Below are positions 13,062-15,800 of a stretch of DNA of 39,344 bases, one piece after another. A model generated the notes under the pieces. The model had not been told where the DNA came from. It ran no database searches and was given only the letters and a program-made list of their open reading frames with translations. The translations under genes and the position numbers were made by a program. The stretch is from Deltaproteobacteria bacterium (GTDB lineage: Bacteria > Myxococcota > Myxococcia > Myxococcales > JAHFDP01). How positions within the stretch are numbered: the first letter of the stretch is position 1; each line of letters begins with the position of its first letter. The DNA lies in NCBI GenBank assembly GCA_023248955.1, contig JAHFDP010000013.1, forward strand, positions 1 to 39,344, read 5' to 3'.

Positions 13062-14120
13062 ATGGATTTTCGCACGCTCTCGGGTTCTCGCGCGCCGCTG
13101 GCCGATCGCCTCCGCGCAGCGCACGTGCGGTCGATTCTCCTCGTGGAAACCGCGTGGCTTGGCGATGTGGTCTTTGTGTCCGTTTTGGCGCAAGCGTTGG
13201 CGGCTGGTTTCCCAAACGCGCGCGTGACGCTCCTCTGCGCGCCGCGTGGCCGGGATGTGGGCGCCTGCATGCCCGGTGTTTCGGAAGTCATCGTTTACGA
13301 CAAACACGGAGCGGACGAAGGGCCAGCCGCGTTCACGCGCCTCCTTCGCCATTTGCGCGCGCGGCGATTCGATCTGTCGGTCTCGCCGCACCGCTCGGCG
13401 CGGACCGCGCTGCTCTCGCGTTTGGTGGGCGCGCCGCTTCGGCTTGGTTACGCCACGCCGCCCGGCGCGCTCTGCTTTACCGACACGGTTCCCGATCGCG
13501 GTGGCCGTTTCGCGGAGCGCGATCTCACGCTGGCGCGCGCTTTGGGAATCGAGAAGGCGTTCACCCCGCGGCTCGACGTGAACGCGGTTGGACGTGCCTC
13601 GGCGACGCGCGCGTTGGCGCAGCATGGTGTTCGGGAAGACGCGCGCCTGGTGGGGCTGGTGATTGGCAGCGAGCGCGCGACAAAACGTTGGCCCGCGGAG
13701 CACTTCGGATCGCTGGCGGCTTCCTTGCTGGCGCGCGGATTGACGCCGCTGCTGCTCGGCAGCCCCGAGGAGCGCGTGCTCGGGCAGCTGGTGCGACAAA
13801 TTGCGCCGAATACAATCGATATCGTTGGTAATACGGTGCTGGAAACGCTCGGCTTGCTGGAGCGCTGCGAACTGGTCGTCGGCGGCGATACCGGGCTCGT
13901 GCACGCCGCGCGAGCGCTAGGCCGCCCGACGGTGCCGCTGTTTGGTCCGACCGATCCGGCCGCGCATCTTTTTGGTGAACGCGATCGCCCGCAGTGGCTG
14001 ACGCTTCCCTGTGCGCCGTGCAGCAAGAGCGGGCCGCGGCGTTGTCCGCTCGGGCATCACAAGTGTTTGCGTGAGCTCAAAGTGGCGAAGGTGTTGGCTG
14101 CCGCCGTGGAATTGGTCTAA
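13062..14120 (+). CDS. GT9 heptosyltransferase-like protein (lipopolysaccharide core)
   Basis: 352 residues of glycosyltransferase family 9 (WaaC/WaaF/WaaQ type). Marks are the N-terminal ILLVETAWLGDVVFVS, GSERATKRWPAEHF in the middle, and the nucleotide-sugar end VVGGDTGLVHAARALGRPTV. The C-terminal Cys-rich LPCAPCSKSG resembles WaaF members. The probable role is transfer of heptose, or a related sugar, from an ADP-linked donor to the LPS core on the inner face of the membrane. It is coupled to the upstream cyclase (4-bp gap). The last codons run into the first palindrome of the operator array at 14112. Confidence 0.88.
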   Translation: MDFRTLSGSRAPLADRLRAAHVRSILLVETAWLGDVVFVSVLAQALAAGFPNARVTLLCAPRGRDVGACMPGVSEVIVYDKHGADEGPAAFTRLLRHLRARRFDLSVSPHRSARTALLSRLVGAPLRLGYATPPGALCFTDTVPDRGGRFAERDLTLARALGIEKAFTPRLDVNAVGRASATRALAQHGVREDARLVGLVIGSERATKRWPAEHFGSLAASLLARGLTPLLLGSPEERVLGQLVRQIAPNTIDIVGNTVLETLGLLERCELVVGGDTGLVHAARALGRPTVPLFGPTDPAAHLFGERDRPQWLTLPCAPCSKSGPRRCPLGHHKCLRELKVAKVLAAAVELV

Positions 14121-14221
14121 GCCAATCTACGAAACAGACGAAATTGGTCGCGACCAAAATAAGGACATTCGTATCTTGGTCTTGACCAATTTACGATTAC
14201 ACATAAAATGGTCAGGTGCCT
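14112..14221 (+). promoter_or_regulatory. Four-site 32-bp-phased palindrome array over the ATPase promoter
   Basis: TTGGTCTAAGCCAA (14112), TTGGTCGCGACCAA (14144, perfect dyad) and TTGGTCTTGACCAA (14176) start exactly 32 bp apart. A half-site ATGGTC begins at 14208, again 32 bp on. A promoter with -35 TTGACC (14182-14187), a 16-bp spacer and -10 TAAAAT (14204-14209) puts the transcription start on or next to the GTG at 14216. Site three covers the -35 and the half-site covers the start, so a bound repressor would block it. The three-turn spacing implies binding on one face of the helix. Confidence 0.75.
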
Positions 14222-15421
14222 CAAACTCGTTTCTACGACGCAATGCTTGATGAACACTTGCGCCACAACCGCCAGATGGCCTTTGTCACCGGGCCGCGCC
14301 AGGTGGGCAAGACGACGGTCTGCCGCGCGGCGGGATCGGTCTACCTCGATTGGGACAACACGGACGACCGTCGCGTCATCCTGCGTGGTCCTTCTGCGGT
14401 CGCCGATCGCGCCGGCCTCTCACGTTTGCACGCGCGTCCACCCGTCGTCGTGTTTGACGAGCTTCACAAGTTCCCGCGGTGGAAGCATTTCCTCAAAGGC
14501 TTTTTCGATACCTACGCCAGCCAGGCGCGCATCGTGGTCACGGGCAGTTCGCGCATGGATGTTTACCGGCGGGGCGGCGATAGCCTCATGGGCCGTTACT
14601 TTCTCTACCGGATGCATCCGTTCTCCTTGGGCGAAATCGCCTGGCAGAACATTCCCGACCCCAAGCGTTTGGTTCGTCCGCCCAAGCGTGTTGCCGCGGC
14701 GGATGCGCGCGCGCTCTGGGACCACGGCGGTTTTCCGGAACTGTTCGTCCATCGCGCACTCCGGTTTACGCGCCGTTGGTCCGCGTTGCGCCGGCAGCAG
14801 CTAGTCCGCGAGGACATCCGCGATCTCACGGTTGTGCGGGAGCTTGCGCAGATGGAGACGCTGGCGGAGCTGCTCCAGGAGCGCTCCGGAACGCAGCTCG
14901 TTTACAGCAATCTGGCGAACGAAATTCAGGTGAGCGTGGATACCGTGCGTCGCTGGGTGGAGTCCCTGTGTGGATTTCACCTGGGTTTCCTGCTGCGTCC
15001 CTGGTTTCGCAACATCTCCCGCTCGCTTCGCAAGGAGCCCAAGTGGTTTCTGTACGACTGGTCGAGCATTGATGATCAGGGGAAACGCGCCGAGACTTTC
15101 ATCGCCTGTCATCTGCTCAAGGCCGTTCACGGCTGGACCGATCTCGGTTTCGGCCAATTCCAACTTGGCTATCTGCGCGACAAGAGCAAACGAGAGGTCG
15201 ACTTCGTGGTCGTGCGGGACGGCAAGCCGTGGATGCTGGTCGAGGTCAAAAACGCCGATGGGCACTTGAGCCCCGCCCTTCGCTATTTCCAAGAGCAGAC
15301 CAAGGCTCCTTTTGCGTTTCAGGTTCTCCTCGACGCCGACTTTGTCGAGGCTGACTGCTTTGCGTCCCACCGTGGGCCGCTGGTGGTGCCGGCCAGGACG
15401 TTGCTCTCACAGCTCCTGTGA
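14216..15421 (+). CDS. AAA ATPase with DUF4143 / PD-(D/E)XK nuclease-like C-terminus
   Basis: 401 residues of the AAA_14 + DUF4143 type. Walker A is GPRQVGKTT (26-34) and Walker B VVVFDE ends at residues 81-82. A winged-helix-like middle is suggested by IQVSVDTVRRWVESL. The C-terminus carries REVDFVV (D329) and LVEVK (E343, K345), a pattern matching the PD-(D/E)XK nuclease core. Whether it cuts nucleic acid is unknown; many family members are uncharacterised and are frequently transferred. The GTG at 14216 coincides with the predicted transcription start, so the mRNA may be leaderless. Neighbouring genes are unrelated surface-sugar genes, which suggests an inserted solitary gene. Confidence 0.82.
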   Translation: MPQTRFYDAMLDEHLRHNRQMAFVTGPRQVGKTTVCRAAGSVYLDWDNTDDRRVILRGPSAVADRAGLSRLHARPPVVVFDELHKFPRWKHFLKGFFDTYASQARIVVTGSSRMDVYRRGGDSLMGRYFLYRMHPFSLGEIAWQNIPDPKRLVRPPKRVAAADARALWDHGGFPELFVHRALRFTRRWSALRRQQLVREDIRDLTVVRELAQMETLAELLQERSGTQLVYSNLANEIQVSVDTVRRWVESLCGFHLGFLLRPWFRNISRSLRKEPKWFLYDWSSIDDQGKRAETFIACHLLKAVHGWTDLGFGQFQLGYLRDKSKREVDFVVVRDGKPWMLVEVKNADGHLSPALRYFQEQTKAPFAFQVLLDADFVEADCFASHRGPLVVPARTLLSQLL

Positions 15422-15661: not shown

Positions 15662-15671
15662 TCATGCGCCA

Positions 15672-15774
15672 GATTTCCCTCTTGCGGGGGAGGGCCAGGG
15701 TGGGGGGATTGAAACCGACTGCGAGTGACGTGCTCCCCCACCCTCATCCTCCCCCCTCAAGGGGGAGGGAAATC
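15672..15774. repeat. G/C-rich palindromic intergenic repeat
   Basis: Arms 15672-15707 and 15733-15774 are complementary with a few gaps (GATTTCCCTC against GAGGGAAATC; CAGGGTGGGGG against CCCCCACCCT). The left arm shares a 19-bp block, with one change, with the copy inside the SoxA-like gene at 3482-3520. It ends 26 bp before the next gene, so it lies in that gene's leader region. Confidence 0.75.
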
Positions 15775-15800
15775 GGCGGATTGGGCCCGAATTTCGCCTC

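What the first reader, a model, noticed from the sequence alone, without database searches (positions are those of the whole stretch)
14112..14221. Four palindromic sites at exact 32-bp spacing over the ATPase promoter
TTGGTCnnGACCAA dyads start at 14112, 14144 and 14176, and a half-site starts at 14208. The third covers the -35 and the half-site the start codon. Three helical turns between sites implies a cooperatively binding repressor on one face. No regulator gene is next to it, so the ATPase itself or a distant regulator may act.
Basis: partly seen in the sequence, partly recalled or inferred. Interest (0 to 1): 0.65.

Follow-up and report, generated by a model that had tools for sequence, protein, structure and literature searches.

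The report
Defence-candidate ATPase reads its own promoter
The repeated palindromes are a regularly spaced array of binding sites covering the promoter of a stand-alone ATPase-nuclease gene; hundreds of related genes each carry their own version, and two protein positions change in step with the DNA letters, so the protein most likely binds and shuts off its own promoter - the first mechanistic handle on one of the most common but untested candidate phage-defence gene families.

Summary
Window 14103-14214 holds seven 16-bp half-sites in alternating orientation (consensus nGACCAATnTAnG). This gives dyads every 32 bp over the promoter of an AAA_14-DUF4143 gene (GTG 14216). The same geometry recurs upstream of its relatives: exact 6-mer repeats at lag 32 occur in 80 of 124 genes (3.5 expected), and a 4-half-site array of exactly 16 bp in 100 of 113 exceeds every shuffle, while no other half-site length works. 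The motif letters differ from gene to gene, and they co-vary with the gene's own protein. Lys/Arg at residue 323 (hairpin of the PD-(D/E)XK-like domain) goes with C at half-site base 4 in 118 of 120 genes, against 5 of 67 without Lys/Arg. Residue 242 (start of the HTH recognition helix) tracks bases 11-16. Both were the top of 299 columns in independent sister pairs and held in new genes. Promoters are predicted leaderless (-10 end 6-8 nt before the start codon). No partner gene recurs nearby. Best reading: the ATPase is its own repressor. The family is PADLOC PDC-S01, an abundant single-gene defence candidate without experimental validation. Binding, repression and defence remain untested.

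The parts
14103..14214 (.). Operator array: seven 16-bp half-sites in alternating orientation (14103-14118, 14119-14134, 14135-14150, 14151-14166, 14167-14182, 14183-14198, 14199-14214); consensus nGACCAATnTAnG
   Evidence: array score 61, shuffles at most 53
14112..14125 (.). Dyad TTGGTCTAAGCCAA (2 mismatches), overlaps the stop codon (14118-14120) of the upstream ORF
14144..14157 (.). Dyad TTGGTCGCGACCAA (perfect)
14176..14189 (.). Dyad TTGGTCTTGACCAA (perfect), holds the -35 box
14182..14187 (+). -35-like hexamer TTGACC
   Evidence: same layout in relatives
14204..14209 (+). -10-like hexamer TAAAAT, spacer 16, six bases before GTG
14208..14213 (+). ATGGTC, end of the last half-site; the ATG is not in the ATPase frame
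14216..15421 (+). AAA_14 + wHTH + PD-(D/E)XK-like (DUF4143) protein, 401 aa, start GTG; matches PADLOC PDC-S01
14939..14941 (+). Codon of D242 (second residue of the recognition helix); co-varies with half-site bases 11-16
15182..15184 (+). Codon of K323 (beta-hairpin of the nuclease-like domain); co-varies with half-site base 4
15092..15250 (+). Region carrying the PD-(D/E)XK-like residues E293, D329, E343, K345 (each in at least 218 of 221 subfamily proteins)

Best explanation
The array is the cognate operator of the ATPase encoded right behind it. Each protomer is proposed to bind a 16-bp half-site in two neighbouring major grooves: the hairpin around residue 323 of the PD-(D/E)XK-like domain reads the outer end (GAC[C/T] when residue 323 is Lys, GACA when Arg, often GAGT when Thr), and the winged-helix recognition helix (residue 242) reads the inner end about one turn away. 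Protomers pair head-to-head and tail-to-tail, giving dyads every 16 bp and a 32-bp repeat, and coat the -35, the -10 and the transcription start, blocking RNA polymerase. The mRNA starts at or next to the start codon (leaderless), so the gene is a self-contained, self-limiting unit. Shown by sequence: the array, its conserved geometry, its divergence in letters, the residue-base co-variation, the promoter position and the absence of a partner gene. Inferred: physical binding, protomer pairing, repression, and the leaderless transcript. Not known: what ATP hydrolysis and the nuclease site do; a defence role is only suggested by family assignment.
For: Lag-32 repeats: 27/46 (1.3 expected), 53/78 in an independent sample (2.5 expected), 80/124 overall (3.5 expected). 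Half-site length 16 only: 88% of 113 genes above all shuffles, at most 11% for 12-15 and 17-20; 100/113 exceed every one of 565 shuffles; 154/220 in the enlarged set against a stricter shuffle maximum. Residue 323 is the top of 299 columns for operator bases 2-6 (r 0.49, family-wise p<0.001) and residue 242 the top for bases 11-16 (r 0.46, p 0.0008) in 91 disjoint sister pairs. K/R323 with C4: 56/57 vs 2/43 in the discovery genes, 62/63 vs 3/24 in new genes; 12 of 13 sister pairs discordant at 323 change base 4 in the same direction. The link persists where no half-site overlaps a TTGAC box: 30/31 vs 5/65. The window obeys it: K323 with GACC, D242 with G13. -10 end to start codon 6-8 nt in 96 of 159 genes, SD-like 12/186 vs 38/139 in other ORFs. 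No recurrent neighbour other than paralogues.
Against: No binding or expression data. Co-variation shows dependence, not contact, and residues 242 and 323 could act indirectly. Recognition-helix columns as a group are not enriched; only single positions are. 33 of 220 subfamily genes lack a clear array. Position alone cannot exclude that bound protein activates rather than represses. The 16-bp array is confined to this subfamily: other DUF4143 genes have one palindrome near the start (49% vs 3.4% shuffled) but no 16-bp array.
Confidence: 0.78

Rival explanations
1. The array is the operator of a separate regulator encoded elsewhere in the genome, with the ATPase only a target.
For: Autoregulation was not measured; the window lies in one draft genome of 116 contigs.
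Against: Operator letters follow residues of the ATPase itself across more than ten phyla and in sister pairs. Co-resident paralogues have their own operator letters; no near-identical pair among 110. No regulator gene recurs nearby. Perfect dyads occur only here in the genome.
Confidence: 0.07
2. The protein binds its array to activate or switch its own promoter (for example looping or ATP-driven remodelling) rather than to repress it.
For: AAA+ family; the array extends about 80 bp upstream of the -35; ATPase and nuclease motifs are intact in nearly all members.
Against: Sites lie directly on -35, -10 and start, where bound protein normally blocks polymerase (established knowledge); good -35 and -10 boxes need no activator.
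Confidence: 0.13
3. The repeats are the end of a mobile element or the cleavage site of the nuclease domain (homing or transposition), not an operator.
For: Patchy distribution and many paralogues per genome, and an intact PD-(D/E)XK-like site.
Against: No strong copy of the array downstream of any of 181 genes; no match in viral contigs with two exact patterns; the usual fixed register with -35, -10 and start codon fits regulation.
Confidence: 0.06
4. The palindromes act in RNA as a 5' hairpin or attenuator.
For: Inverted repeats next to a start codon are typical of such elements (general knowledge).
Against: The predicted start of transcription is at the start codon, so the array is not transcribed from this promoter; the repeat is strictly periodic at 32 bp, close to three helical turns.
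Confidence: 0.02
5. Local duplication or chance.
For: Tandem duplication could give exact spacing in one genome.
Against: Same geometry with different letters in unrelated genomes.
Confidence: 0.01

Closest known systems
PADLOC PDC-S01 (single-gene phage-defence candidate)
   Same: P0001 matches several PDC-S01 models (best E 2.6e-51); ATPase fused to PD-(D/E)XK; stand-alone gene (PMC12988326)
   Different: No operator, autoregulation, leaderless transcript or recognition code was found described; the held literature says experimental validation is pending
Pfam AAA_14 (PF13173) + DUF4143 (PF13635)
   Same: Both domains above cut-off
   Different: Pfam gives no function; DUF4143 genes outside this subfamily have at most a single palindrome, not a 16-bp array
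Autoregulated winged-helix repressors (ArsR/SmtB, MarR)
   Same: Fold of the middle domain (best PDB fold matches, E 0.006 and weaker); palindromic operator over own promoter
   Different: Here the DNA binder is an AAA+ ATPase with an intact nuclease-like domain, and that nuclease-like domain seems to share in reading the operator; long array instead of one or two sites
AAA+-winged-helix DNA binders (Orc1/Cdc6, RuvB, clamp loaders)
   Same: AAA+ followed by winged helix; Orc1/Cdc6-DNA is among the best fold matches
   Different: Not replication proteins; operator arrays over own promoter; TM-scores are low

Membership tests
AAA_14-DUF4143 family (Pfam) | Both Pfam domains above gathering score | tested here: met
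   82.2 vs 27 and 91.3 vs 28.1 bits
PADLOC PDC-S01 | Match to PDC-S01 profile over most of the protein | tested here: met
   E 2.6e-51, residues 5-372
PADLOC PDC-S01 | Protects against phage | not testable with these tools
   needs a phage challenge; literature says validation pending
PD-(D/E)XK nuclease superfamily | Conserved E / D / ExK motif | tested here: met
   E293, D329, E343, K345 in at least 218 of 221
PD-(D/E)XK nuclease superfamily | Fold match to a solved member | tested here: inconclusive
   weak sequence hit to Card1 and weak fold hit to Bax1; best fold hits are to the winged-helix part
PD-(D/E)XK nuclease superfamily | Cuts nucleic acid | not testable with these tools
   needs a nuclease assay
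Autoregulatory repressor | Operator overlaps own core promoter | tested here: met
   (promoter boxes predicted from consensus)
Autoregulatory repressor | Own protein specifies the operator sequence | tested here: met
   residue-base co-variation, (indirect evidence)
Autoregulatory repressor | Protein lowers transcription | not testable with these tools
   needs a reporter assay
Transposable element end | Matching repeat at the other end of the unit | tested here: not met
   no strong copy in 181 downstream flanks (up to 1.5 kb)

The most novel reading that the evidence does not exclude
The promoter array is more than an operator: the ATPase-nuclease assembles on it as an inactive, stored oligomer, and an infection cue (phage DNA, loss of ATP, damage) releases it, both inducing the gene and freeing an active nuclease, so that sensing, storage and regulation are one DNA-bound complex read by a two-part protein-DNA code.
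Probability: 0.15. Interest if true: 0.92.

Novelty: new variant of a known kind. Interest (0 to 1): 0.78.

Why it matters
PDC-S01 is reported as the fourth most common defence candidate in prokaryotes, with about 39,000 detected copies and no validated mechanism (PMC12988326). This gives it a molecular activity that can be tested at once: sequence-specific self-recognition with a readable code, so operators can be predicted in part from protein sequence and the reverse. It also suggests that a nuclease-like domain can serve as a base-reading module, and that some annotated starts of these genes may be wrong because the transcripts lack ribosome-binding leaders.

Tried and rejected
A single-protein scan of genome contigs found nothing; the alignment scan worked. 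A first Mantel test of domain identity against k-mer sharing hinted at the HTH, but with positional operator comparison it was weak and not significant once close relatives were removed; sister-pair contrasts replaced it. The recognition helix as a block is not enriched. Paralogue insulation (more different operators within one genome) was not found: 0.517 vs 0.512. Extra copies of the array downstream or upstream: none strong downstream; the own-versus-other comparison there is biased by base composition and is not used. The array-extent counter was too strict and is not used. Exact operator patterns in viral contigs: none. No solved relative by sequence for P0001. Promoter overlap as a confounder of the 323-base 4 link was tested and excluded. 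RNA hairpin, mobile-element end and duplication were considered and set aside.

Full report
Check of the observation. The dyads are present at the stated coordinates with exact 32-bp spacing; the first has two mismatches. A fit of alternating 16-bp half-sites shows seven of them at 14103-14214, sharing nGACCAATnTAnG; the four best such scores in the whole window are here, and 2000 shuffles of the region reach at most 53 against 61. Perfect dyads occur only at this promoter in the 3.83-Mb genome, and the eight one-mismatch sites elsewhere that were read have no 32-bp companions. The gene starts at GTG 14216, not at the ATG of 14208, which is in another frame. A -35-like TTGACC (14182), 16-bp spacer, TAAAAT (14204) and six bases lead to the GTG.

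The protein. It is an AAA_14 + DUF4143 protein of 401 aa. AlphaFold2 gives a confident model (pLDDT 92; C-terminal part 94.5): AAA+ domain, winged helix, PD-(D/E)XK-like domain. Fold matches are AAA+ proteins, several with winged helices bound to DNA, for the whole chain and ArsR/MarR repressors for the middle part. Walker motifs and E293/D329/E343/K345 are almost invariant. It matches PADLOC PDC-S01.

The same geometry in relatives. Relatives were taken from 195 genomes of the phylum, 80 loci of a public genome collection from many phyla, paralogues in 50 of those genomes and two further phylum samples. Exact 6-mer repeats at lag 32 were found in 27 of 46 genes of the first set (1.26 expected), 53 of 78 of the second (2.5 expected) and 80 of 124 together (3.5 expected); no other lag stands out. 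Strong inverted repeats occur in 68% against 11% of 214 other upstream regions; those controls show a mild lag-32 excess (18 against about 8), probably because some overlap other copies of the family. Fitting four alternating half-sites, only a length of 16 works: 88% of 113 genes exceed all shuffles. In the enlarged set 154 of 220 exceed a shuffle maximum of 52, and 187 reach 48. The dyad with the -35 box most often sits 33-34 bases before the start codon.

Who reads it. The letters differ between genes and sort with the recognition helix by eye. In 91 disjoint sister pairs, of 299 variable columns, residue 323 best predicts change in bases 2-6 and residue 242 best predicts change in bases 11-16, both significant after correction for all columns. 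Residue 323 lies in the hairpin between two strands of the nuclease-like domain, residue 242 at the start of the recognition helix. Lys or Arg at 323 goes with C at base 4 in 118 of 120 genes; without them 5 of 67. The rule, found in the first 100 genes, held in 87 later ones (62/63 vs 3/24); Arg goes with A at base 5; 12 of 13 sister pairs that differ at 323 change base 4 accordingly. Because GAC is also part of a -35 box, the test was repeated on half-sites outside TTGAC boxes (116/120 vs 5/67) and on genes with none (30/31 vs 5/65); it stands. This is sequence evidence that the ATPase itself specifies the operator; contact is inferred.

Promoter and neighbours. In 159 genes with -35- and -10-like boxes the -10 ends 6-8 bases before the start codon in 96, and SD-like motifs are scarce (12/186 against 38/139 in other ORFs), so the mRNA is predicted leaderless. 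In one annotated plasmid copy (L342) the array and a well-placed ATG lie upstream of the annotated start, which suggests the annotated start is too late. No neighbour family other than DUF4143 paralogues recurs in more than three of 144 loci.

Range. Seventy-one DUF4143 genes outside the subfamily have an inverted repeat near the start in 49% (3.4% in shuffles) but no 16-bp array; a minority show 22- and 44-bp repeats. So a self-specific operator may be general for the family, and the 16-bp array is the form used by this subfamily.

Novelty and limits. DUF4143 occurs in one paper of the held library; PDC-S01 is described as the fourth most common defence candidate, validation pending. I found no description of its regulation, but the library is incomplete. 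Binding, repression, transcript start and defence are not shown here.

Noticed in passing
window 15671-15786: GC-rich inverted repeat (CCCTCTTGCGGGGGAGGG ... CCCCCTCAAGGGGGAGGG) between two genes; looks like a dispersed repeat element.
   Followed up: no
L019-L023 and L312-L384: Other DUF4143 subfamilies carry single palindromes next to the start codon; a few have 22- or 44-bp periodic repeats (for example Rhizobium etli CFN 42, L343).
   Followed up: partly
L342 (Rhabdochlamydia plasmid), annotated start at 807: The array and a well-placed ATG lie 5' of the annotated start; annotated starts of leaderless members may often be wrong.
   Followed up: partly
L341 (Candidatus Bandiella numerosa plasmid): A relative annotated as two adjacent ORFs, so probably broken; array score near the shuffle level.
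   Followed up: no
genomes G165, G188, G067, G121: 16 to 19 DUF4143 genes in one genome, while many genomes of the same phylum have none at that threshold.
   Followed up: no
window 13062-14120: Upstream ORF on the same strand; its stop codon lies inside the first dyad, so the array begins at the very end of that gene.
   Followed up: no
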